Shown here piece by piece: positions 35,755-50,284 of a DNA stretch of 64,000 bases (positions within the stretch are counted from its first letter, which is position 1; each line of letters begins with the position of its first letter). The notes under the pieces are model-generated. The model was not told where the DNA came from, did no database searches, and was given only the letters and a program-made list of their open reading frames with translations. The position numbers were made by a program, and so were the translations under genes. This stretch comes from Trametes villosa (taxonomy: Eukaryota > Basidiomycota > Agaricomycetes > Polyporales > Polyporaceae): the NCBI GenBank assembly GCA_002964805.2, contig PUDQ02000005.1:124001-188000 (forward strand), given 5' to 3'.

Positions 35755-37532
35755 ATGTCTTCCACCTCGTCAGCGGTCGTTGCAGAAGTCACCGCCGATT
35801 ATGATGTTGTGTAAGCCGTTCATTTTCGACTACTATGCGCGAGGCTGATATCCATATGTAGGAGGACGAGCCTCTCCGTCCTCTGCGCCTGTGTGGGTGC
35901 GTCAACCCCTTTGGCCTACGCCGTCTATCCGACCTCGTTTCGACTGCGTACGTACTCACCATGCCAACAGCGTTGCTTCTGTACGATATCATCCTTTGTC
36001 TGGACAAGGAGATCCAATACGTCTGGCGATCCTCGAAGTCTTCTCGCCGACTTTCACGGGTTCTCTATGTGTACATCAGATATATCTCCGTGCTAGACGA
36101 GCTCTGGTCGCTGGCGTCTATTCCCGCTATGTCGGACACTGTGAGTGCAGTTCTCGTATCATAAAGAAGTCCGACTAATCAAACCCCATCTCTTGTAGAG
36201 GTGAGCTTTTGCCCTCGAGGCTGCGTTTCTCGAGTGCTTCTGATCCTCGAAAAGCTGTATCGCGGTCAACTGGTTGGGAAATAGTACCGCGGTACTCACT
36301 TTGATAGGCCCATCCGGTAAACCCGGCCATTCGCTATAAGGCTCTCATACTTCATTGCTCACTGCATTTCGACGACAGTGTTCGCAACCCTCAGAGTCTA
36401 TGCGCTCTCGGGGAAACACAAGGTTCTCACCGGGATAACGCTGGCGATTAGCATTACCCCGTTCCTTGCCAACGCTGTACGCAGTTTGCCTACCCTAAAG
36501 AAATTTCAGCGTCGCTTTGCTCAACATTTACTCCCCTAGGCCACGCTGTACCAGAGACTTCCCCTCAATCTGCCCGCGCCGGATGGCTGTACAAGTACTA
36601 ACGCTGCAAGCGACGCGGTATACACTGGGTAAGCTGTCTAGTCTACTAGCGTTAGTCGGCCTAACTCACTCTCGCTTCGCGGTATACCAGGTGTACGTCC
36701 GGGAATATCAACGAAAGGGTCAGCTGCTGACCGTCTTGAGTAGTAACGATTGCCTGCAGGTCTTGTTTGATACTCGCAGACACGATCGCCGCAGTGGTCA
36801 CATGGAGGCGAACCCGTATCTCTCGTCAACTCTCGGCGAATGGCGTCGCTCGGCAACCCTCTCTTGAGCGAACCGTATGGGAAAACGGTGCGTTGAGCTA
36901 ACATACTGTACTCTTTATGGCTTGCATGCTAACCACCGCGTGCGTTGTCCGCTTTCAAGGCAACGTCTACTTCTGGTAGGGCTCGCCTCCCCCACGCACC
37001 GCTGTTTAGCTCAGATATCCTCGACGAAGCGCGCTGGTCTCGCTCAACATGGTGGACATCGTCTCGACCGTGCTGTCGGTGAGTTCCTTATCAAGCTCCT
37101 TTGATCGTCAAACCCAACGTGCTTGACAGATCGCCACGCAACTCGAGGGTGGGCCCTACCTGGTGGATTTCATCGATCCGTAAGAGACTAACATTCGCGC
37201 AGTGCGCCCACGCAAAGAAACTCACCGCGCACAGTATCAGCTCGATCCTCAGCAGCCGCTTCCTCCTCGCCCTGTACGAGACGAATGCGAGGATGGAGAA
37301 CGGCGGCTCCTCGGTCTCCGTGTTCTCTGAAGACCGCGGCACCGCGGGCCGCGGAGGCTCGCCCTCGCTTCCGGAGTTCGTTAACCCACTCGCAGGTCCG
37401 ATTTGCTCGTTCGACGACGAAGACCCGGAAATGTTCGACGACGCGCCCGTGTCGCACGACGAGCTCGGCGTGGAGGCGGGCGCGGACATCGAGATGGAAT
37501 TGGTGGAGCAAGAGGCTTGCGAGCGGGAGTAA
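35755..37532 (+). CDS. DUF6533 membrane protein, copy 1
   Basis: 13 exons: 35755-35810, 35862-35896, 35971-36140, 36199-36200, 36255-36316, 36379-36476, 36540-36628, 36691-36692, 36744-36887, 36960-36975, 37030-37078, 37130-37179, 37235-37532; 356 aa. The DUF6533 core is LLLYDIILCLDKEIQYVW with SRVLYVYIRYISVL. Later helices include FATLRVYALSGKHKVLTGIT, the CLILADTIAAVVTWRR segment and LVSLNMVDIVSTVLS; the cytosol-type tail is acidic (FDDEDPEMFDD). Two exons are only 2 nt (AG and GT) yet are needed for the frame; copies 2-4 share them. Function is unknown; receptor-like roles have been guessed for the family. It was separated from the GMC gene by the LINE. Confidence 0.85.
36199..36200 (+). 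other. 2-nt micro-exon 1 of DUF6533 copy 1
   Basis: CTTGTAG|AG|GTGAGC. Left intron is 58 bp, right intron 54 bp. AG plus the next C makes a Ser codon. Confidence 0.75.
36691..36692 (+). other. 2-nt micro-exon 2 of DUF6533 copy 1
   Basis: ATACCAG|GT|GTACGT. Left intron is 62 bp, right intron 51 bp. GG+G and T+TA give Gly-Leu. Confidence 0.75.
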
Positions 37533-37904
37533 TGCCGCCTGGTGTTTTTGCGCTGCCGTGGCTGTCATTTCGTGGAGCCTGAGTGGGTGTCTGATTCGCA
37601 GTATGTATAACGTCTCGCCGATCGGGTTTTCTCCGCAGGGAATTAAGTACTACTTTCTCGTATTCCCTACGATGTATCACACTCTCGCCAATTCGCGACC
37701 TTGTGCCAATTCGCGACCTTGTGCAACGACATTCGATGGAGAACCTGTCAGCATCTCTTTTTCTCTCTCTCACCCCGGACCCAAGGCGTGCGAGCTCTCG
37801 CCCTTCGACACGTTTTCTTACGCCCGTATCCCAACTTACCGATGTGGCCGACAGGTACAATGCCTATTGCTTTCGCATAATTAGTAGCCCAACCTGACTC
37901 TAGG
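37533..37904. other. Downstream of DUF6533 copy 1, no gene seen
   Basis: Contains an exact 18-bp tandem duplication (37689-37724, CAATTCGCGACCTTGTGC twice). Otherwise nothing recognisable. Confidence 0.5.
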
Positions 37905-38225
37905 GCTCGTGCCAGTGTCATCCGCATAACAGCGGCACGAGAACAGACAGGCCCTCGCCGGAACGACTCTGCGACGCTCCTCGCCCCGCGATACATGCTT
38001 CGAGAGATGCGCACTGGGCGCATGTCAGACGCAGGCGGACGCGCAGCCGCGCGTGCACGGGCAGTGCGTGGGCTCCCGACGTGCGACACGTCCACGTCCC
38101 CGAAGATCGTGATGATGCTCGCGAGGGCGCTGGCGGCGGGTGTCCTAGAAAAAGTGCGCGGCGACGATACGACACATGGAGAGGCGTTCAGAGGCTCAGC
38201 CGCTCTAGCATCTGCGGCAGGTACC
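37905..38225 (+). pseudogene. GMC oxidoreductase relic 1 (3' end)
   Basis: A translated stretch reads GRMSDAGGRAAARARAVRGL then CDTSTSPKIV and ARALAAGVLEKV. This lines up with the end of the intact GMC enzyme (CRMGAGAHGARP, VRGLRVCDTSVFPEIV, APAVMVAEKCAEL). Upstream, SVIRITAAREQTG resembles VRFALRIADDVRDTG. The active-site His region and the full-length frame are lost. It lies between DUF6533 copies 1 and 2. Confidence 0.6.
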
Positions 38226-39514
38226 CTAAGAAAAGCAACTACTCGCACCTACACCGTGAACACACTGGCCGCTGCCCTGTCTTATGTCGGAGGCGTTGGG
38301 CGCGAGCTCGAGCTCGAGCGGCGCGCAGGGGCTTTCCGTGCTGCATGCCAGCAAGCGCGTCGCAGCTGTGGAGTCGACGGCGTTCGGGAATGTTGTGGAT
38401 GTGCATGTCCCGGGATGGGGAGCCTTCAAAGGTTGGGAGGAGGAGCGCTCACTCTATGCTACGGTTTCGGCAAAACCCGGATGGCGATTGCCATCCTCCA
38501 GCGTCGAAGCGCTGGGCCATGCCGTCTCAGTCATCTCTTCCTTGAGTCGCGATATGCAAGTACTCAGCCCTCAACTTCGAGTCCTTCACGCCCGAACTGA
38601 TTAGGATGGATGAAATGTATGGCGTAACGTCGCTAATTTGCTCCGAATTGGCACAACTCAGAAGGCGCCAAGATGGCCGCTTCTCCTGACAGCGCAGTTG
38701 CCCGCGTTCAACTTGATAAGTTGATACCCTGTGACGAAACACGTCCGTAGACACAAAATAACGAGCATCATCACGCTGCAAACCCACCTTCCAGGGCAAG
38801 TTGGGCGACCTTCAATCGTCCTACCTACGACATGCAACACGCCAACTTCGCTCGTCCTTTGACACATGGAGACTACCGCACTGGGTCAAGGTACGAAAGA
38901 TCGTGCGAGTGCTCAGTTTCTCCTCAACCGATTGCTCCGTGCAGATCTTCAAGTTATCGCACAACTATCTAGAGGAACGGACCGTTCGGTCTCCGGGACG
39001 CCTTCATTCAGCGCACATTCACCTGCAATGTTCTATCAAGGCGCGACGACTGGGAGCTTTCGCCCTGCGCTGCACCACATGCGTGCCGAAAACTAGTAAC
39101 GGTTCCCATGTTGAGGGCAGGTACGCCTCGTAATCCGGAGAATTAATCCAGATCATGACAGGTTTTCTTGTGCGGCAGATTGTTATGGACGCGGTCGTGA
39201 TATATAGACGCATCGAGGCGGCGGCTCGCTCCCGTGAAGGCGCAGTGGATTCCATTGGCCACACAGATACCGCGGTGAATGGAAACCTGGATGCTAAGTG
39301 GTTTGAAGTCGTCATTCCTATCTCAACCGCTCGATGCGGCCTCTCTCAGCGCGATGGAAATCAGGATGACTCTCTTCAGCGTCGTATTTTGCAACCATCA
39401 AGACCCTCTCGCAAGTTGTATTAAACCTCCGGCGCAAGTGGCACTACGACTCGTCACCCAGCACCTGCTTTCACGTTCTGCGCTAGCAGACCACGTCCAC
39501 AGGCTCTCTTCAAC
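38226..39514. other. Spacer between GMC relic 1 and DUF6533 copy 2
   Basis: No recognisable gene. The stretch at 38284-38604 has a plausible but unassigned frame. The part near 39117 matches the upstream region of copy 1. Confidence 0.4.
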
Positions 39515-41325
39515 ATGTCCTCAATTGCTCCGGCAGCTGCTCAAGAAATTGTCGCAGAATACCAAGATCTGTACGCTGCTAGGTCTCGGATAATTGGCTG
39601 CTAACTAATGTTACTACACAGGAGGGCGGGGATCACCGTTTTCGCCGCGTGTGCGGGTACGTCTCTCCTTGTGGCTAGCGCCGTCTCCCGGACACTCCTG
39701 GTCGAGTACTTATTTGCTCTGTCAACAGCGCTCCTGGTGTACGATATTGTTCTCTGCCTCGACAGGGAGGTCCAATATGTCTGGCGGTCGTCGAAGTCAT
39801 CTCGCAGGCTTTCGCGGGCCCTATACCTTTACATCAGATACATGGCCGTACTGGAGAATATCTGGACCCTCATCACGATTCCCTCCATGTCAAACACCGT
39901 GAGTGGAGCTGACATGCCGCCGTCGAGCACTCTCGCTGATCAGGATGCACCTTTCGCAGAGGTCAGCACCTGCCTTCGAGACTGTACGTTCCGTGCATAC
40001 CTGAACCTGTGTCTCAAACAGCTGTAAAGCCATCGAATGGGTGGGCGGCTTCATAGTGGTGTTTAACCTCATAGGCCCCGCCGGTACGCTGCTGGATATA
40101 ATATACGGCTTTCATACCCACTTACACCCATTCATTCGTCGCATGCTGACGCTAGTGTTTACCACCCTGAGGGTCTACGCGCTCTCTGAGAAGCACAAGC
40201 TGCTAACTGCGACGACGCTGGTGCTCAGCATGGGCCCGTTTATCATCAACGCGGTATGCGGTTTGTCTACCTGGATATTTTCTCCGAGAATGCCGACTGA
40301 TACCACAATACCTCCGCAGAGCACCAGGTACCAGGTTATTTTCCGCAACCTCCCAGCCCCTGCGGGGTGTGCATCGTATACCGTTACAACTGCGGCTATA
40401 CATACCGGGTGAGTCGTTCTATCTACGCTCCATATATCCGCGCTCCGCTCACATACGATTGGCAAGATGTGCGTTCCGGGCTCAGGCTACTGACTGAGGT
40501 CGCCGCGCTCTAACTTTCTCGAGCAGTGACTATCACATCCAGATCTTGCTTGATACTCGCAGATACGCTGGCTGTCGCCGTCACATGGCGACGAGCGCGT
40601 ATCTCCCGCCAACTCTCGACAGACAACATCAGCCGGAGATCCTCTCTTGAGCAGATACTGTGGGAGAATGGTGAACCGACTTGTCTCCTTGAATTCACCG
40701 TGTCGTGCATACTGACCGTCGCACCTCCTCTCCGCTTCCCAGGCAACGTCTACTTCTGGTGAGAATTCCCCCCCCCCAGCGATGCCATCTTCTCTTGCTG
40801 AGACACACCGGCAGCACACTGGTATCGCTGAATATCGTGGATATGGTCCTGGATTCGCTTTCGGTGCGTGCCCGTCTACACTGTACATGTCGTCTCGCTC
40901 TCAACGTCGAATCTTATGCCAGGTCACAACGGAGATTGGCGGAGGGTCCTACATCATCGACTTCATCGACCCGTATGGCTGTCTCTGTACTGGTCCGATC
41001 GCGCCAGGAAAGCTCACCGTAACGACTCGCCCTGCACAGAATCAGCTCGATCCTCAACAGCCGTTTCCTGCTCGCTCTATACGAGACAAACGCCAGGCTC
41101 GCACGAGGCGGCTCCTCGGTCTCCTCGTTCTCCGTCGACCTCGGCAACGCAGACCGCGGAGGTTCGCCCGAACTCCCGGAATTCGTCACCCCACTCGCGG
41201 GCCCGATCCACACCTTCGACGGGGAAGACCCGGAGATGTTCGACGATGTGCCCGTGCCGCACGTGGACGCGGGGATGGAGATAGAGATGGAGATGAGGGA
41301 GCAGGAGGTTCGCGAACGGGCGTGA
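39515..41325 (+). CDS. DUF6533 membrane protein, copy 2
   Basis: 13 exons: 39515-39570, 39622-39656, 39729-39898, 39960-39961, 40022-40083, 40156-40253, 40320-40408, 40467-40468, 40527-40670, 40743-40758, 40815-40863, 40923-40972, 41040-41325; 352 aa. Core: LLVYDIVLCLDREVQYVW, SRALYLYIRYMAVLENIW. Then EWVGGFIVVFNLIGPA, FTTLRVYALSEKHKLL, CLILADTLAVAVTWRR, NVYFW, SLNIVDMVLDSLS, IGGGSYIIDFIDP, SILNSRFLLALYETNARL and an acidic tail. Micro-exons AG and AT are required; total length 1,059 nt divides by three only with both. All splice sites are GT-AG. Presumably a polytopic membrane protein of unknown role. Confidence 0.87.
39960..39961 (+). other. 2-nt micro-exon 1 of DUF6533 copy 2
   Basis: TTCGCAG|AG|GTCAGC; introns 61 and 60 bp. 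The donor is the weakest of the eight. Confidence 0.7.
40467..40468 (+). other. 2-nt micro-exon 2 of DUF6533 copy 2
   Basis: GGCAAG|AT|GTGCGT; introns 58 and 58 bp. GG+A and T+TG give Gly-Leu. Confidence 0.72.
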
Positions 41326-42100
41326 CCCTGTCGCAGAGTTTTGCGCTTTAGGTGGTAATTTCTTGGAGCTATGCTGTGCCGTGTGACCCTAGTCTCGCTG
41401 AGTGTATATGTGATCTGGGTAGCATCTCTTGTCTGGAGCGGCGATGTACTATCTCCTGGTATACCCTGCGCATCATGCCACAGCGACCGTGGCTTGTGAT
41501 GCAGCCACAGTGGTCGCCCGACGCGCAGCTCACGGTCGCTCTTACTATCCTGGCTTAGCCGTGAAGGTATGTCCCTACTCTCCGTCTCGGGCGGTTACGA
41601 AACACCGATCTCTAGGTGCTCACTCTCGTCTAGCTCATCTACGTGTTCTGCGACCACACCGCGGCCTCTCTTCCGGCCCCTTTCCCCTTTCTAAGCATCA
41701 CAGGTCTCACGACTAACACTCCCAGTGGGTCGTTGCGCAGAACCATGCTATGCCGCGCCCTGCGAACCGGCTGGACCTCTCACTGGCGCTTTTCCCGAAG
41801 AGCGGCTTCGACGCAGCCTCTGAGTGCTACGCGCGGCGGTTCGCAGCCAACAGCGCGCGCAGCCGTCAGATCGTAGGGCTAAGGCTCCTCACCGCTACTT
41901 GAAGTCGCAGAAAGACGCGTCCGCCTTGCGCTGAATATCGCTGAGAACGTGGGCCGCGAGGACTACTCACCGCCGAACACCATTGTCCCCGCCGCCGGCG
42001 GTAGCAATGAGCTCGGCAGGTTCGTCCGGCGGATGATCTGAAACCAAACCCTCTGCATGTCGACCTAAAAGTTCAGGTCGGAACACACACGGGCGAGCCC
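41326..42100 (+). pseudogene. GMC oxidoreductase relic 2a
   Basis: Readable piece near 41920-42030: VRLALNIAENVGREDYS, then IVPAAGGSNELGRFVRR. It aligns with VRFALRIADDVRDTGYP and IVPASDEDDELDAFIRR of the intact enzyme, followed by a stop. Around 41630-41880 a stretch about the length of the TRLLDERSS region is present but scrambled by frameshifts. The first ~250 bp after DUF6533 copy 2 are probably its 3' region. Confidence 0.6.
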
Positions 42101-42879
42101 AAGGATGATAGATAGACACGCACCAGCAACTTCGAGTGCACAAAGTGCGGGCTTCGAGGTAGACTGGGCGGCGACGTCGCGAGCGAGCTTGGGTCGCAAC
42201 GGCCCCCTACAGCGTTCTGAGCACAGAATGTATTGCCGGCGTTACTTCTCGTGTGTGATCTGTTCAGTGCAGGAGGACTGTGGTCTGTGGACGATGATCG
42301 CGCAGTGTAAGATGGCGCCTACTACGAGGGAAGCATACTGATATCCACCCACACGGCACAAGAGACCGGCTCGCCCTGCGCGTCCGTCAAAGTCAAGCTT
42401 TGTATCGAGCAAGTGGAGGCCCGTTGCCCAGCCCGGTAATCACGCTATTCTCCATAAGTAGCATGAGGATGCGTGTAACCCGCCAGGCCTGTCATCGAAG
42501 AGCATCGAAGACGTATAGACCCGCTAGACTCGAATATTGATCATCAGCGAGCCGCGACAGCGAGATCAGTTCCCAGAAAGTAAAGCTGTCGAGAGGAGAG
42601 TTTTGCGAGCATGTCTGACTGATCGAACAAGCAGGTGGCCGCAAATCCAGGCGAACTTGACGGAGGAAAAGCAGGAACGGCGGCTCAAGCGCTCACTGCA
42701 CGCGCGAGACCCGGCAAAAGCCGGATAGGTATTCACACCAATCACGAAGGCGCGCTTAATCCTAGGGTCTGCGCTCGCTCTCTGAGTCTAGTACGTTGCG
42801 ATGCATCCTACACCGACGAACCGCGCTCACCACGCGATGGAAGAATAAATTCACTAGTGAGCCTCGCATCTCTCAGCGC
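42101..42879. other. Spacer within the tandem array
   Basis: No gene. The piece around 42630-42780 (GGCAAAAGCCGG and flanks) is repeated around 47110-47260, as expected for a duplicated segment. Confidence 0.5.
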
Positions 42880-43400
42880 CATCTTCAACTGTGGCTGCAT
42901 AATTGACGGTCACCCTTTGGTCGCCTTCCTGGACCAGGCTCCTGCCACCAGCGTCGCAGCAAGGGCGGCCCGGGGCACTACCTCCCATGGGGATCCTGCA
43001 GTTCCAGTTCATGCCGGCCTACAGGAGCTCGCGCCCTTGCTGAACGGCTTCGAGCTTGCGCTGCACATCAACGACGAGGCTCGCCACACTGGCTACTCGG
43101 CTGCGAGACCGCCGACACGACGATGACGAGCTAGACAAGCTAGCCAGATCCGTCGGCGACACCTGCGCTACTGCGACCACCTCCCGCAGACACCCAGGAT
43201 AGCGGTGGCAACGCATGTGCTGCGGCCCAGTGTTGTGCACACGCAACTGCGCGTGCCACAAGCTGCGTCTGTGCGACATGTCCGTGTTCCCGGAGGTCAT
43301 GTCGGCCCAGAACACGCACAATGACGCCGTCTGTAGTGGCCGCAGAGACCTGCTCGGAGCTGGTGCGGATAGCAGCAAGGCTCTTAGTGCGTCTGTTCTC
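42880..43400 (+). pseudogene. GMC oxidoreductase relic 2b
   Basis: FELALHINDEARHTGYS, DDDELDKLARS, a decayed His/Cys region, HVLRPSVVHTQLRV and KLRLCDMSVFPEV align in order with FALRIADDVRDTGYP, EDDELDAFIRR, ARPSVVDTQLRV and LRVCDTSVFPEI of the intact enzyme, ending in AAETCSELVRIAARLL. Several frame changes separate the pieces. Confidence 0.7.
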
Positions 43401-43880
43401 TTGTATTCCTGTATTCCTGGATATTGCTAATCGAATGTCGCGTTACCGGCTTAGAGCACTTACGCTGTGGGAGGTTACGCTCGAGATGGACGCCCGATGG
43501 CTACTAACTATGCCGATTCATCAGAGCATACATTGGGGCTACGTAGCGGTCCAGAAGTGTAGCTCGGGGACTCATCTTTGTGCGAGCGCAACGGAGTGCG
43601 TTCACCCAGCAGGTCATTTCTCGGCACGTCAAAACTTAGAGGCTGCGCCGTCCGGAGCTTTCGCATCTATCTCCACAGCTCGATGGAACTCATCCTCAAC
43701 GCGATCGAGACGATGGTGGCTCACAGCTCGATTCGACGATTGGTCTACGGGCCGCCTGTTGCAACTATCAAGGCCTTGACCCTTGTCTCTATAAACCACC
43801 GGCGCGAGAATGTGAACCGTCTGCAAGCCCCCGCTCCCACCGTGTCGGCTTCGAGGCAACGCCCGCCAGCATCAGGAGGC
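43401..43880. other. Promoter region of DUF6533 copy 3
   Basis: TATAAA at 43790-43795 lies 86 bp before the start codon. The stretch near 43521 (TTCATCAGAGCATACATTGG and on) matches the region near 48140 upstream of copy 4. Confidence 0.55.
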
Positions 43881-45677
43881 ATGTCTTCGATCTCTTCAGC
43901 GGCCGTGACAGAAAAAATCGCTGAATACCAAGATGTGTAAGGTATTGGTTTTGTGTTAGTACGAAGAGGAAGACTAATGTTTTCACGTAGGAGAACACTG
44001 ACAATTGTTCTCTGTGCCTGCGTGAGTACGTCATCCCCTCTTTCCTATGCCATATCTCGGGCACAGTGTTAGTTCGGTGCTTATTCGCTCTGCCGACAGC
44101 GCTCCCCTTGTACGACGCCGCCCTCTGCATCGACAAGGAGGTCCAATATGTCTGGCGGTCGTCGAAGTCATCTCGCAGGCTTTCGCAAAGCCTGTATCTT
44201 TACATCAGATATATGTCCCTTCTTGCTAATATCTGGCCGTTCGCAACGATTCCTTACATGTCGAACTCTGTGAGTGGAACCGTTATGTCGTCGAGCGATC
44301 CGGCTAATCAAGACATATTTCACAGACGTAAGCACCTGATCTCAAAATGACATGCTTCGTGCACTCTCGACCTTGTATCCCCGAACAGCTGCACTGCTGT
44401 CATCTGGGTGGGCATTATCATGGTGGTGCTGCCTATAATAGGCCCTGCCGGTATGTGTCTAGATTCACCATGCAGCTTTCATATCTATCTCCTCACTTCA
44501 TGCCGACGCCAGTTTTCACCGCTCTGAGAGTCTACGCGCTCTCTGGGAAAAACAAAGCCCAAGCCGCTGGGATAACGTTGGTGCTTAGCATGGCCCCGTT
44601 TCTCATCATTGTGGTTTGCAATTTATCTACCCGTACAGTTTGCGGACGACGTGAGATAAACTGCTACTCCCAGGGGACAGCGTACCAGAACATTCCCGTC
44701 AATCTACCTCTGCCCGAGGGCTGTACGATTCACAACAGTGCAAGTGCTGCCGTATATATCGGGTGAGCCGTTTCAGATCGCTACCATAGGTGTACCCTGT
44801 GCTAACACTACGACTCGTCAGGTGTGAGTTCTGCCAGGGTTGTTGCAGCTCCGAGCCGGCCGCTGACTTTCTCGGAACAGCAACCATCGCCTCCAGGTCA
44901 TGCCTGATACTCGCAGACACACTGGCCGCGACCGTCACCTGGCGGCAAGCCCGTACCTCCCGCCAAATCTCGACAGACATCTTGCCCCGACGATCCTCTC
45001 TTCAGCGGGTTCTATGGGAGAATGGTGAGTAGCGTCAGTTTATCGAAATCACCGTATCCCGTATACTAACAGTTGCGTCTCCTATCGGCTTTGTAGGGAA
45101 TGTCTACTTCTGGTAGGGTTGAGGCTGCTATGCCATCGCAGTTTTGCTCAGATGTTCTCGACGTAGTATACTGGCATCACTCAATATAGTGGCTATCGTC
45201 CTGGCTGTGCTTTCGGTACGTTTCCGTCCGAATACGTTCATCTTGTTACTGAAACACTCTACTCCTATGGTAGGTTGCAACAGAGGTTGGTGGAGGAAGC
45301 TATGTTCTAACCTTCATCGATCCGTGAGGCTCTCCCCATCGGTCCCGTCAATAGAGCCTTTCATGACGACTCGTTGACCTCGCAGCATCAGCTTGATCCT
45401 CAACAGTCGCTTCCTGCTCGCTCTCTACGAGACGAACGCGAGGATGGAGCGCGGCGGCTCCTCTGTCTCCTCATTCTCCGTCGACCTCGGCAGCGCGGAC
45501 CGTGAAGGCTCCCCCGAACTCCCGAACTTCGTCAACCCACTCGCGGGCCCGATCCACTCGTTCGAGGATGAAGACCCGGAGATGTTCGAGGACTTGCTGG
45601 CCCCGCCCGTCGAGTCCGGCGTGGAAGCGGAGGCCGAGATAGAGATGGCAGTGCTTGGGCAGGAGGTGGATGAGTAG
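43881..45677 (+). CDS. DUF6533 membrane protein, copy 3
   Basis: 13 exons: 43881-43936, 43991-44025, 44100-44269, 44326-44327, 44389-44450, 44513-44613, 44674-44762, 44822-44823, 44881-45024, 45097-45112, 45167-45215, 45274-45323, 45386-45677; 355 aa. Core LPLYDAALCIDKEVQYVW, SQSLYLYIRYMSLLANIW; then VIWVGIIMVVLPIIGPA, FTALRVYALSGKNKAQ, CLILADTLAATVTWRQ, SLNIVAIVLAVLS, LILNSRFLLALYETNARM and an acidic tail. One extra codon in exon 6 sets it apart from copies 1, 2 and 4. Micro-exons are AC and GT. A TATA box lies 86 bp upstream of the start. Confidence 0.85.
44326..44327 (+). other. 2-nt micro-exon 1 of DUF6533 copy 3
   Basis: TTTCACAG|AC|GTAAGC; introns 56 and 61 bp. AC+C gives Thr where the other copies give Ser. 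The donor is close to consensus. Confidence 0.75.
44822..44823 (+). other. 2-nt micro-exon 2 of DUF6533 copy 3
   Basis: CTCGTCAG|GT|GTGAGT; introns 59 and 57 bp. GG+G and T+CA give Gly-Ser. Confidence 0.75.
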
Positions 45678-45969
45678 GCGTGACGCCGTTTCAGCTTCTC
45701 ATGCGTTTTCGTTGTTACTTCTTGGAGCTAGGTTGTGCCGTGGGCCCCCAAGGCTCGCTGACTGTATATGCATATGTGGCCCCGATCGTACTCATTGTCT
45801 AGTACGCCGATGTACCACTATACTTATCCTGATATATCCTATGTATCATGCCATGGCGACCATGGCTTGTTGTGCAGCGAAAGTCGTCGTCGTCTACCGC
45901 CGCGCATGTTGTCCCGGTGGGCGTACAGGTACGTCATGACTCTCTCCCTCGCGCGACTGTGAAAGACTG
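45678..45969. other. Downstream of DUF6533 copy 3, no gene seen
   Basis: Resembles the 3' flank of copy 2 (TTCTTGGAGCTA, then CATGCCA..GCGACC..GGCTTGT), so the 3' region was duplicated too. Confidence 0.45.
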
Positions 45970-46750
45970 AGCTCCCCGCGACATCTACCGCTATTGTGCT
46001 CGAACCGGTCCACACCTTCTCGCCATCCCTCCTTGCCAACCTAGTACTGGTGTTTCCCTCATTCACGCGAAAGGTATCCCGGCACGACGCGCGACACTCT
46101 TCTTCATCGGGGCCTCGCACCTCACCCTTCAGGCTCTTACCCTCGACCAGCCCATCTACGTCTTTCGTGAGCACGCCGCGGCCTCTCCTCGGACCCCCTT
46201 CTGAGCGGCACACGCTTTACTCGAACGCGCCTCCTCGACAAGTACGCCTGCCGCGTCAGCGCGCATGATCACTGTATGTTGCGCCCTGCGAAGCGGCCGA
46301 GCCTGAGGCTCTGGATTTTCCTAGATAGCGGCACGGACGCATAAACCGTCCTCCCGACGTCCATCACGCTACCCCCTGGGCGCTATGCGCGACAGGGCGT
46401 CGAGCTGAGGGCCTTCACATTTACGTTCACCCGCCAAAGAGCGCATCCGCTTCGCGCTAACTATCGCTGAGAACGTCGGCCGTGAGGGTCATTCCCTGCT
46501 AAGCATCATTGTCCCCGCCGCCGACGATGGCAATGAGCTCAACGCGTTCATCCGGTGGGTAATCCGCGGCTACGGATACTGCACATCAACCCGGACTACG
46601 AATCAGAACGCATACGAACAAGCCCAAGGTTGGTAGAAACGCAGCTTCGTGTGTGCGAGGCGCGGGCTTTGAGGATGGGCGGCAACGTCGCGAGCGGACT
46701 TAGGATCGCACTGGCCCACTATAGCTCGATGAACAGAAACTGCACCTTGA
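45970..46750 (+). pseudogene. GMC oxidoreductase relic 3a
   Basis: RTRLLDKYACRVS, then RIRFALTIAENVGREGHSLL, IVPAADDGNELNAFIRW, GYGYCTSTRTT and VETQLRVCEARALRMGG. These follow the order of the intact enzyme (TRLLDERSS, VRFALRIADDVRDTGYP, DDELDAFIRR, CYHYTSTCRM, VDTQLRVHGVRGL). Frameshifts and stops separate the pieces, so the gene is dead. Confidence 0.75.
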
Positions 46751-47389
46751 ACTAGGTTGCCTGACCTTGTTTCTGCTCGCTACTCGGTAGAGGATTGCTG
46801 TGGATGACTATCACTCGGTGTAAGCCTGAATGCATTGCGTGCGAGGGAAGCACGCCAATATCCACTTACACAGCATCGACGACCAACCCACCCTGTGCGT
46901 CCGTTCGAGTTAAAATTTACATGAGCAAGCTAACGTTCCCGGTGCCCCACCCAGTAGAAAAGTAATCGCCCACGGCGTAAGGGTGCGTGTAGCTCGCAAT
47001 GAGGTATGCCACGAGCAACGACGGCGAGAGAAATTCCCAGAAAGTGATATTCTAGAGTACTTGAAGAGTTTTTCGAGCATGTAAAGCCGAGAGCATACGC
47101 AGCTGAACGCAAGTATCGGAGTGGACATAGGAAAAGCAGGAGGCGGGTGGCGAGCCGCGACTCACTGCTCACGCGAGACCGGCAAAAGCCGGTTGCGCAA
47201 TCCCACCAATCATGAATGCGCGCCTAATTATTGGGCCTTCGCGCGCTATCTTTGCGCTGCCTCTCATCTCAGTCAACCGTACCGGTCTATTTCCTCGGGC
47301 CAGTGAGTAATGTTGTCCTCTGTACGCTCGCCGCTCTCGCTGAACGCTACTGGTGTTGTAGTATCAAGGACATTCTTCTTACATGGCAG
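46751..47389. other. Spacer within the tandem array
   Basis: No gene. The part at 47110-47260 is the counterpart of 42630-42780. Confidence 0.45.
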
Positions 47390-48030
47390 GATATCGAGGG
47401 CGGCTTTCCCCAACAGCGCACCCGTGCACTGGCAGCGTATCATTCAGATTAGTATCCTACGGTGCGATGCTGCCTACACCATCAAATCGCACTCAGCAGG
47501 TGGCAGAAGGCGAAATCCACCCGTGAGTCCTGCATAGCTCAATTCAATTTTCGCTTGTAGCTGCGGAACTCACCCTTCGATCGCCTTGCCTCCTGCGTCG
47601 CAACATGTGTACCTCCCATGGGAATTCTGCCGTCTCAGTTCATGACGTTCTACTAGAGCTCGTGCCTTTGCGGAACGGCCTTCAGCCTGCGCCGCACATC
47701 GCCGAGGCCACTGGACACACCGGCTACTCGCTGTAAGACCGCCGGCGACGACGGTGACGAGCGGGACAAGCTAGCTACATCCATTGACGGCACCTGCGCT
47801 ACTGCGACCACCACCCCCAGGCACGCCGCATACAGTAGCGGAGGCAACGCATGTGCTGCGGCCCAGTGTTGTGCACAAGCATTGAAGCAACTGCGCGTGC
47901 CACAGGCTGCGCATGTGCGACATGTCCGTGTTTCCGGAGGTCGTGCTGGCCTAGAGCACGCACAATGACGCTAACCGTGCTGATCGCGGAGAGGTACGCG
48001 GAGCTGGCGCGGATGGCAGCAAGGCTCTAG
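47390..48030 (+). pseudogene. GMC oxidoreductase relic 3b
   Basis: Near-duplicate of relic 2b: the stretches at 47650-47870 and 47890-48030 match 43020-43250 and 43250-43390 closely, including GCAACGCATGTGCTGCGGCC and the CDMSVFPEV region. It has further stops and a small insertion after GTTGTGCACA. Confidence 0.7.
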
Positions 48031-48454
48031 TTGCGTTCGTCCTTGTATATTCGTCGGCGCTGCTGATCGATCATTGTGTTACCGGCTTAGGGCACTCGAG
48101 ATAGACGATCGCTGGAGGCTTCCGACTACGCTCGTTCATCAGAGCATGGATCAGGGCTGCGTAGCGGCCCAGGAGTGTAGCGGGACCTGGCTCTCGCTGG
48201 ATACCGAGACGAAAAGGGCGAGCGTTGTGCGCAAAGCGCCACAATTTGCGTGAGCGCCATCCATATCCTGCTCATCGCCCCCTCGACACCGACGCCCATG
48301 CGGTATAACGTTCAGAATCCGCTCACTGAAACTTTCCCCCGCCTAGCTGCATCACATACAAAGTGTCCAGCACAAACAGTGATGCGTGCATCCGGTACCC
48401 ACCCTTCTCCCTCGCAGTCCTAAACTTCGAGGTTGCATCTGATTGCACCCGCTC
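48031..48454. other. Promoter region of DUF6533 copy 4
   Basis: Related to the region upstream of copy 3. No gene. Confidence 0.45.
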
Positions 48455-50284
48455 ATGTCTTTGTCCGCCTCTCAAGAAGTAACTGCGCTTTACCAGAACG
48501 TGTACGCAGTCCCAAAGTGGACTCTAGACACACGCTTACGCCTCGTCGTAGGAGGACGAAGAACGTCCTCAACTACGTCACCGCAGGTGCGGCTTACCTT
48601 CTTCTATACGACTTCTTGATTTAACGCGCGAGCTCAGAGTCTTCTAACACACTATTTGATAGCTTTCCTGCTCTATGACATTCTCCTCTGTGCGGACAAG
48701 GAAGTCCAGCACGTCTGGCGACCGAATAAGACATCTCGCAGAATCTCGCGAGCTCTATATCTGTATATCAGATACATGTCCCTGCTGGGGAATCTCTGGC
48801 CGTTTGCGACACTCCCGATGATGTCGAATACCGTGAGTGCAAGCTATCCTATCCACGCCCGGGGATAATCTCACCAAGGTAGACGTATTTCGTGCAGAGG
48901 TAAGCGTATGTCTTCGTGTCTGTACATTCACACATTACACGGTATCTACCAACAGCTGCGCTGCCGTCACTTGGTTTGGGAATATCCTAGCTGTGCTGAA
49001 CACCCTAGGTCCTGCCGGTGCGTCGTTCTGCTCGCCTTGGGCCTCAGGAATTCATTATCTAACGGCATATTGAGTCTAGCGTTCACCACCCTGAGAGTAT
49101 ACGCGCTCTCCAGTGGTCATAAGATTCTGACCGGGGTAACGCTTATACTGAGCATCGGCCCCTTCCTCATCAACGCGGTTCGTATTTTCACTCCTGCGTA
49201 GATGGTGAGATGCGCTAATGCTAATGGTCCCTTCTGCAGAGTGCAGCATATCAGGATGTCATCGTCAATCTCCCTCCGCCGCAGGGCTGTTCGCGGTTCA
49301 TATCTGCCAGCACGGCAGTATATATCGGGTATGCTGCTTCGGCTACTGGCTCGATATCCATGAACTGACGCTCACTTCGTGACCACGCAGGTGTACGTTC
49401 TTGGTCGCCGGAGCAGACAAAAAGTCACTGACCAGTTCGAACAGTGACCGTCGCCTCCAGGAGTTGCTTAATACTCGCAGACTCTCTGGCCGCGGGGGTC
49501 ACCTGGCGGCGCACGCGAAAGTCCCGTCAACCAGCGATAGGAGCTCTTCGACGTTCATCTCTTGAGCAAATACTGTGGGCTAATGGTCAGCTGAACCATC
49601 TTCCTTGGATTCGCGCTTCCAGAATACTATTCACTCGCTCCATCTGTCTTACAGGGAACGTCTATCTCTGGTATAGTCCTCTCAGTTCGCCGGCTGCAAC
49701 TCTGCTGAACTATTCTCGCTACGAAGTGCATTAGTGTCACTGAATATAGCTGACATCGTTCTGACCGTACTGTCGGTGAGCACGCGCATTAACACATACT
49801 TCGCGACTCCGAACCTCATCATGCACGTCAGATTGCAACCCAACTCGGCGGAGGGAGCTACATCCTCGACGTTATCGACCCGTACGACTCTTCCTCGCGC
49901 TACTACGGGCCATACTGCTGACCCCGGCCTCTCGGCTTCTTCAGCATCAGCTCGGTGCTCAATAGCCGCTTCCTGCTGGCCTTATACGAGACGAACGCCA
50001 GGCTCGAGCAAGGCGGAAGCTCTGTCTCGTCCATGTCCGTCCATCTTAGTAGCGCGAGTCGCCCCGGAGAGTCGCCCGACCTGCCGGAATTCGTCAATCC
50101 GCTCGCGGGTCCAATCCACTCGTTCGAGGAGGAAGATCCGGAGATGTTCGATGACGAGCCAGTCCGAGAAATTGACCACCTCGGAGTGGGCGCGGGCGCG
50201 AACGCAGCGGTGGAGGCAGGAGTGGAAGCAGAGCACGCCATGGAACCTTCGGCGGACGGGCTGCCTGCAGCGTCGTCGATTTGA
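48455..50284 (+). CDS. DUF6533 membrane protein, copy 4
   Basis: 13 exons: 48455-48501, 48552-48586, 48663-48832, 48898-48899, 48956-49017, 49080-49177, 49240-49328, 49391-49392, 49445-49585, 49655-49670, 49727-49775, 49832-49881, 49945-50284; 366 aa. Core FLLYDILLCADKEVQHVW, SRALYLYIRYMSLLGNLW; then FTTLRVYALSSGHKIL, CLILADSLAAGVTWRR, SLNIADIVLTVLS, IGGGSYILDVIDP and SVLNSRFLLALYETNARL. It has the longest acidic tail of the four. The first exon is 9 nt shorter and the second has a diverged sequence. Micro-exons are AG and GT. Confidence 0.86.
48898..48899 (+). other. 2-nt micro-exon 1 of DUF6533 copy 4
   Basis: CGTGCAG|AG|GTAAGC; introns 65 and 56 bp, near-consensus donor. Confidence 0.77.
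49391..49392 (+). other. 2-nt micro-exon 2 of DUF6533 copy 4
   Basis: CCACGCAG|GT|GTACGT; introns 62 and 52 bp. Confidence 0.76.

What the first reader, a model, noticed from the sequence alone, without database searches (positions are those of the whole stretch)
36199..49392. Two 2-nucleotide micro-exons conserved in all four tandem DUF6533 genes
In each copy the exon ending at 36140, 39898, 44269 or 48832 closes a codon, while the next conserved exon starts one base into a codon, so two bases are missing. At the right spot each gene has an acceptor AG, two bases (AG, AG, AC, AG) and at once a GT donor, dividing the gap into two normal introns (58+54, 61+60, 56+61, 65+56 bp). The same happens later with GT, AT, GT, GT (62+51, 58+58, 59+57, 62+52 bp). 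With both micro-exons the four coding lengths are 1071, 1059, 1068 and 1101 nt, all divisible by three, and nine exon lengths are identical. Exons this short are near the lower limit known and would be missed by gene finders.
Basis: partly seen in the sequence, partly recalled or inferred. Interest (0 to 1): 0.88.

Follow-up and report, generated by a model that had tools for sequence, protein, structure and literature searches.

The report
Family-wide two-base exons in fungi
Four neighbouring membrane-protein genes of a bracket fungus each appear to need two exons only two bases long, and most related genes we read in the same genome share them, so these proteins are often misread in public gene annotations.

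Summary
A spliced aligner using annotated proteins of other subfamilies recovers both 2-nt exons in all four genes unprompted. They are not peculiar to this tandem array: of 101 DUF6533 loci read out of 121 hits in this 46.7-Mb genome, 77 of 95 aligned through site 1 and 79 of 90 through site 2 have a 2-nt exon at the same codon and phase; shuffled gaps give 30/330 and 24/330. A tandem paralogue, L084, lost exactly the first intron of the site-1 pair and carries the two bases fused to its upstream exon. Serine codons assembled at site 1 are AGY in 55 of 56 (28.6% elsewhere), and donors after non-AG micro-exons keep +5 G in 97 of 99, as expected if U1 reads the two bases as exon end. Annotated relatives in other polypores depart from the expected length here (85/137, 71/149) far more than at control junctions. 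No RNA evidence was available. Exons of 1 nt are published; the double, family-wide occurrence is what is new.

The parts
35755..37532 (+). DUF6533 gene 1, 13 coding exons, CDS 1071 nt, 356 aa
   Evidence: Pfam PF20151 E=1.2e-12
36141..36198 (+). gene 1, first intron of the site-1 pair (58 bp, GTGAGT..TAG)
36199..36200 (+). gene 1, 2-nt exon at site 1 (AG; with the next base makes AGC, Ser, before the conserved Cys)
36201..36254 (+). gene 1, second intron of the site-1 pair (54 bp, GTGAGC..AAG)
36629..36690 (+). gene 1, first intron of the site-2 pair (62 bp)
36691..36692 (+). gene 1, 2-nt exon at site 2 (GT)
36693..36743 (+). gene 1, second intron of the site-2 pair (51 bp)
39515..41325 (+). 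DUF6533 gene 2, CDS 1059 nt, 352 aa
   Evidence: Pfam PF20151 E=1.6e-13
39960..39961 (+). gene 2, 2-nt exon at site 1 (AG), introns 61 and 60 bp
40467..40468 (+). gene 2, 2-nt exon at site 2 (AT), introns 58 and 58 bp
43881..45677 (+). DUF6533 gene 3, CDS 1068 nt, 355 aa
   Evidence: Pfam PF20151 E=1.6e-11
44326..44327 (+). gene 3, 2-nt exon at site 1 (AC; codon ACC, Thr), introns 56 and 61 bp
44822..44823 (+). gene 3, 2-nt exon at site 2 (GT), introns 59 and 57 bp
48455..50284 (+). DUF6533 gene 4, CDS 1101 nt, 366 aa
   Evidence: Pfam PF20151 E=2.8e-10
48898..48899 (+). gene 4, 2-nt exon at site 1 (AG), introns 65 and 56 bp
49391..49392 (+). gene 4, 2-nt exon at site 2 (GT), introns 62 and 52 bp

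Best explanation
Each gene carries two constitutive 2-nt exons inherited from an early ancestor of this DUF6533 family. Site 1: intron (phase 0), 2 nt, intron (phase 2); the two bases plus the first base of the next exon make the codon, usually Ser AGC/AGT, just before a nearly invariant Cys that the model puts at the start of the third helix. Site 2: intron (phase 2), 2 nt, intron (phase 1); the two bases finish one codon and start the next, near the start of the fifth helix. Each flanking intron has its own donor, acceptor and, about as often as ordinary introns of these genes, a branch-point-like motif. The introns are therefore most likely removed one after the other by intron definition, since 2 nt can hardly hold two splice-site complexes at once; the bases are read as the end of an exon by U1 at the second donor. 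Skipping a micro-exon shifts the frame, which would explain its conservation. Shown here: positions, phases, frame need, splice signals, family-wide conservation in one genome, one clean natural loss of the upstream intron, annotation trouble at the same two places in other species. Inferred: actual splicing, its order, any regulation.
For: Exact rebuild. Spliced alignment with a profile of other subfamilies finds both 2-nt exons in 4 of 4 genes unprompted; banning them costs 15.9-42.5 units per site (31). Family: 77 of 95 and 79 of 90 loci aligned through, 101 of 121 hits read; without splice-site weights 59 and 56 of 81 (43). Only one 2-nt exon was called anywhere else in 81 loci (L074). Null 30/330 and 24/330 (43). 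Signals in calls made without weights: pyrimidine at -3 of the micro-exon acceptor 98% (n=56) and 97% (n=53); CTRAY upstream 47-64% at the four acceptor classes against 49% at ordinary introns (n=228) and 12-13% shuffled; site-2 donor +5 G 53 of 53; intron medians 57-62 bp against 58 (44). Ser AGY 55 of 56 against 532 of 1857 elsewhere; +5 G in 29 of 57 donors after AG but 18 of 20 (site 1) and 79 of 79 (site 2) otherwise. L084 against L012. The one-intron readings common to the four genes are available in only 31 of 77 and 15 of 79 family loci. Annotated relatives with exact spacing, and length departures concentrated at the two sites.
Against: No transcript was examined. 18 of 95 and 11 of 90 loci aligned through lack the call; some are divergent or degraded, some unresolved. 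Site-1 donors after AG are weak (+5 G in 29 of 57; GTRNGY at the site-1 micro-exon donor 36% against 65% at ordinary donors). In-frame one-intron readings exist in all four genes. Banning the g4 site-1 exon first brought up another 2-nt exon 15 nt upstream. Shuffled gaps still give a call in 7-9% of trials. Loci are paralogues, so p-values overstate independence. Without splice weights the calls drop from 66 each to 59 and 56 of 81. The reference proteins are themselves gene predictions.
Confidence: 0.93

Rival explanations
1. One intron per gap with slightly shifted boundaries; the AG-NN-GT motifs are coincidence.
For: In-frame, open one-intron readings exist: 4, 9, 4 and 13 at site 1 and 3, 1, 17 and 6 at site 2 for g1-g4, GC donors and weak donors included; two of them are shared by all four genes.
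Against: The shared ones are a donor 10 nt upstream of GTC type (removes the MSDTS-like residues) and an acceptor 16 nt downstream (removes LTIASR); the needed GT or AG exists in only 31 of 77 (never GTRNG) and 15 of 79 family loci, and the removed residues are conserved (R 54 of 59, S 44 of 58 models). The other readings differ from gene to gene. The gap is twice a normal intron. Score loss 15.9-42.5 per site. The motif sits at the same codon and phase in 77 and 79 loci.
Confidence: 0.04
2. Stwintron: an intron nested in the donor or acceptor of another, excised in two steps leaving nothing behind.
For: Tandem introns of about 115 bp in sum; stepwise removal is likely in either case.
Against: Both introns have complete GT and AG ends in the DNA, and removal of the whole gap breaks the frame. 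L084 keeps the two bases in its exon.
Confidence: 0.01
3. Recursive splicing at a zero-nucleotide site: at site 1 the second AG of AG-AG-GT is the acceptor and the two bases are lost.
For: 57 of 77 site-1 micro-exons read AG, giving a tandem AGAG acceptor.
Against: The frame is then lost; 20 of 77 site-1 and all 79 site-2 micro-exons are not AG, so no second AG is there. It could still make a minor, frameshifted product.
Confidence: 0.01
4. Not exclusive with the best explanation: inclusion is regulated, and a skipped or mis-chosen micro-exon yields frameshifted transcripts that switch the protein off.
For: Any skip shifts the frame by two; site-1 donors after AG are weak at +5; AGAG offers a competing acceptor; the family is large and tandemly amplified.
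Against: No expression data; strong site-2 donors (+5 G in 79 of 79) look constitutive.
Confidence: 0.15

Closest known systems
1-nt exons of APC11 and VPS55 in land plants (PMC4674806, PMC8831610; passages read)
   Same: Internal exon below 3 nt between two introns, needed for the frame, conserved, missed by annotation.
   Different: 1 nt, one per gene, in low-copy genes, confirmed by RNA; here 2 nt, two per gene, 156 calls in 101 loci of one genome, no RNA.
1-nt exon of CYP621A in Fusarium (PMC12940212; abstract and two of three text parts read)
   Same: Fungal gene, short introns, tiny exon needed to join out-of-phase exons in a conserved motif, a relative without the introns used as ruler.
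   Different: Ascomycete P450, one exon per gene, orthologues across species with read support; here a basidiomycete membrane-protein family with two sites per gene.
Micro-exons of 2-10 aa in Phanerochaete chrysosporium P450 genes (PMC1184071; passages read)
   Same: White-rot fungus, short exons among short introns.
   Different: Shortest reported exon 6 bp.
Recursive splicing ratchet points (search listing and abstracts only; passage)
   Same: Juxtaposed acceptor and donor, stepwise removal.
   Different: Described for long introns with no base kept; here two coding bases are kept between introns of about 58 bp.

Membership tests
Constitutive ultra-short exons (1-3 nt) | Internal exon of 1-3 nt flanked by two introns with their own splice signals | tested here: met
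Constitutive ultra-short exons (1-3 nt) | Bases needed to keep the reading frame | tested here: met
   L084 intron loss
Constitutive ultra-short exons (1-3 nt) | Conserved among related genes | tested here: met
   77 of 95 and 79 of 90 paralogues aligned through; other species only by way of annotated proteins
Constitutive ultra-short exons (1-3 nt) | Present in mature transcripts | not testable with these tools
   no RNA data at hand
Stwintron (definition recalled) | External intron lacks a contiguous canonical splice site until the internal intron is removed | tested here: not met
   each intron has contiguous GT and AG ends
Zero-nucleotide recursive splice site | AG|GT with no base retained | tested here: not met
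   two bases lie between AG and GT and the frame needs them
DUF6533 (PF20151) | Match above Pfam's gathering score | tested here: met
   40.5-51 bits against 24.1 in all four proteins
G protein-coupled receptors | Seven-helix receptor fold | tested here: inconclusive

The most novel reading that the evidence does not exclude
The two 2-nt exons date from the origin of the DUF6533 seven-helix family and persist across mushroom-forming fungi, so thousands of 2-nt exons exist. This would be the largest class of sub-3-nt exons that I know of, with obligatory double stepwise splicing in one transcript, and possibly a splicing checkpoint in which any slip switches the receptor-like protein off.
Probability: 0.5. 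Interest if true: 0.9.

Novelty: new variant of a known kind. Interest (0 to 1): 0.78.

Why it matters
It turns 1-3 nt exons from single curiosities into a replicated natural experiment: 156 calls in 101 paralogous loci of one genome, two per transcript, with natural intron losses as rulers. That makes minimal-exon splicing testable (order of removal, U1 contact across two bases, the trade-off between exon letters and donor strength). It also shows why a large membrane-protein family, one member of which (SNB1, PMC10949477) is needed for fruiting-body patterning, is often mispredicted in polypore genomes.

Tried and rejected
One-intron readings were listed for all eight gaps. Two are shared by the four genes; they were rejected because the family does not generally offer them (31 of 77 and 15 of 79 loci) and because they remove conserved residues; the rest differ between genes. 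Stwintron and zero-nt readings were rejected on frame and on intact splice sites. The worry that the aligner's splice-site weights create the exons: rerun without weights still gives 59 and 56 of 81. The worry that any gap yields AG-NN-GT: 9% and 7% in shuffled gaps. A first attempt to count indels with hmmsearch stopped with an error and was replaced by my own alignment. Some indel peaks elsewhere in annotated proteins (around columns 97-99, 112, 147, 200, 235) look like ordinary loop or subfamily variation, so the site peaks were compared with defined control junctions. I did not get DNA of other fungi: the collections are described as prokaryotic, viral, phage, plasmid and E. coli, and metagenome scans were capped at zero; I ran none of them. 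P0070, a 274-aa protein whose longest contig is 1,444 bases and which has exact spacing at both sites, may be cDNA-like, but I could not verify that. Fold searches gave receptor-like matches at fold level only. Searches for prior reports: (open-licence PMC only); none of the listings showed 2-nt exons in DUF6533 genes. In one search, 25 of 62 papers were listed, all through the vague phrase 'exon of 2'; two searches listed 20 of 27 and 20 of 119. Rows dropped: of 186 proteins, 49 (site 1) and 37 (site 2) lacked an anchor on one side, 58 of 186; the models are the 59 of 81 with score over 220 and exactly two 2-nt exons; one search uses loci with score 200 or more; (site 1; site 2) of 101 loci were not aligned through.
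Full report
What was claimed and checked. Rebuilding the genes from the sequence gives 13 coding exons per gene, coding lengths 1071, 1059, 1068 and 1101 nt, a single terminal stop, nine identical exon lengths and the stated intron sizes. All four proteins match PF20151 above Pfam's cut-off. The genes are 62-67% identical in protein, with dN/dS 0.22-0.29, while introns flanking the micro-exons are only slightly more alike than shuffled ones.

Unprompted recovery. I wrote a spliced aligner that allows exons of any size and gave it a profile of seven annotated proteins from other subfamilies (P0032, P0035, P0034, P0031, P0017, P0015, P0020). Forbidding them cost 15.9-42.5 score units per site; in gene 4 another 2-nt exon 15 nt upstream came up first and was forbidden too. 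The references have an SDxSC-like motif and a TIASR-like motif at the spacing that the micro-exon models give; they are gene predictions themselves.

One-intron alternatives. Open, in-frame one-intron readings exist in every gap. Two are shared by all four genes: a GTC-type donor 10 nt upstream at site 1 and an acceptor 16 nt downstream at site 2. The GT or AG they need lies in coding sequence and is present in only 31 of 77 (never followed by the RNG of a normal donor) and 15 of 79 family loci, and they would remove residues conserved in the family. The rest differ from gene to gene.

Family-wide. The genome (46.7 Mb; the window is contig C5:124001-188000) has 121 DUF6533 hits. 77 of the 95 loci that align through site 1 have a 2-nt exon between a phase-0 and a phase-2 intron before the conserved Cys; 79 of the 90 that align through site 2 have one between a phase-2 and a phase-1 intron (two site-2 cases lie one profile column off). 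In the first 81 loci only one 2-nt exon was called anywhere else (L074). Without any splice-site weights the calls are 59 and 56 of 81. Shuffling the gap while keeping its ends gives a call in 30 of 330 and 24 of 330 trials.

Splice signals. In calls made without weights, the base before the micro-exon acceptor AG is a pyrimidine in 98% (site 1, n=56) and 97% (site 2, n=53). A CTRAY branch motif lies upstream of the four classes of acceptor in 47-64%, as in ordinary introns of the same genes (49%, n=228), against 12-13% in shuffles. Intron medians are 57-62 bp against 58. The site-1 micro-exon donor is weaker than ordinary ones (GTRNGY 36% against 65%), the site-2 one stronger (92%). The micro-exon reads AG in 57 of 77 cases at site 1. 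Serine codons assembled there are AGY in 55 of 56, against 532 of 1857 (28.6%) in the rest of the aligned exons (Fisher p about 4e-28; paralogues are not independent). After AG the donor keeps G at +5 in only 29 of 57; after other letters in 18 of 20 (site 1, p = 0.003) and 79 of 79 (site 2). This trade-off between the last exon bases and +5 is what recognition by U1 predicts (the principle is recalled, not from a call).

A natural ruler. L084 is a tandem neighbour of L012 (about 3 kb apart, 65% identical). L012 reads CAG, intron, GG, intron, C TGC. L084 reads CAG GG, intron, C TGC: the first intron is gone and its exon is 163 nt, two more than the 161 of L012. L097, a more distant and less certain case, also has only the downstream intron at both sites, and L087 only the downstream one at site 2.

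Other species. Of 186 annotated or predicted relatives (three searches; the last listed 120 of 250), those with usable anchors depart from the expected length in 85 of 137 at site 1 and 71 of 149 at site 2. Control junctions depart in 9 of 165, 28 of 168 and 11 of 169 (ordinary introns), 29 of 176 (the 16-nt exon) and 6 of 162, 2 of 175 and 14 of 168 (no intron). Close relatives can be exact in one species (P0075...MSDTSCNDYVKAL) and garbled in another (P0077 and P0080...MSDTVRNLLTIVVRQLADYDPQSCNDYVKAL). Among 128 proteins with a clean upstream anchor, 55 are exact and 19 continue with V[SRCG], the translation of a read-through donor (background 1.6% per position); by eye nine of the other 54 continue with R[YWCS], as AG plus a read-through GT would. 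So the arrangement very probably exists in other polypores, and gene finders solve it wrongly in different ways. Real length differences may account for part of the departures, and no DNA of those species was seen.

Mechanism. Two bases can hardly carry two splice-site complexes at once, so stepwise removal is the likely route, as argued for APC11 (PMC4674806, passages). The order is unknown. Losing either pair of bases shifts the frame, so inclusion must be accurate in working copies. In the few losses seen it is the upstream intron that is missing, which could mean that downstream introns are older; the number is small.

Known or new. Exons of 1 nt are published for plants (PMC4674806 and PMC8831610, passages) and for Fusarium CYP621A (PMC12940212, abstract and two of three parts of the text), whose introduction also cites 2-5 nt exons in Arabidopsis, Drosophila and human. 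The shortest exon in the Phanerochaete P450 survey was 6 bp (PMC1184071, passages). I found no report of 2-nt exons in DUF6533 genes (searches; open-licence PMC only, some listings cut). The phenomenon is a known kind; two per gene across a family of about a hundred genes is a new variant.

Limits. There are no transcripts; one genome; paralogues are not independent; 20 hits unread; several non-calling loci are divergent or degraded.

Noticed in passing
window 36960-36975, 40743-40758, 45097-45112, 49655-49670: A 16-nt exon is conserved in all four genes and in most of the other loci; annotated relatives depart there in 29 of 176.
   Followed up: partly
L062 (G000:C65:304601-308229), site 1: Where the first donor of the site-1 pair is expected the DNA reads ATGAGT instead of GTGAGT, while AG and the next donor are kept: an AT donor, a degraded copy or a new isoform.
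   Followed up: no
L031 (G000:C5:70862-74231, minus strand): Paralogue outside the window keeps the site-1 micro-exon but alignment stops after exon 5, where other, GC-rich DNA follows: probably an insertion.
   Followed up: no
L060 and L097 (G000 contig C27): A divergent pair of paralogues (44% identical) with fewer introns called at the two sites; possible outgroup for the origin of the paired introns.
   Followed up: partly
window 41864-42038 / 46390-46564, 43117-43201 / 47748-47832, 43243-43408 / 47887-48052, 42711-42783 / 47179-47251: Intergenic stretches before genes 3 and 4 are also duplicated (71-82% identical), so the tandem unit is larger than the gene.
   Followed up: no
G000 contig C65:16941-405175: Dense DUF6533 cluster on a 438-kb contig, many more copies than the window's array.
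   Followed up: no
L044 (G000:C24:250435-254051), site 1: First intron of the site-1 pair starts with GCAAGT, a GC donor.
   Followed up: no
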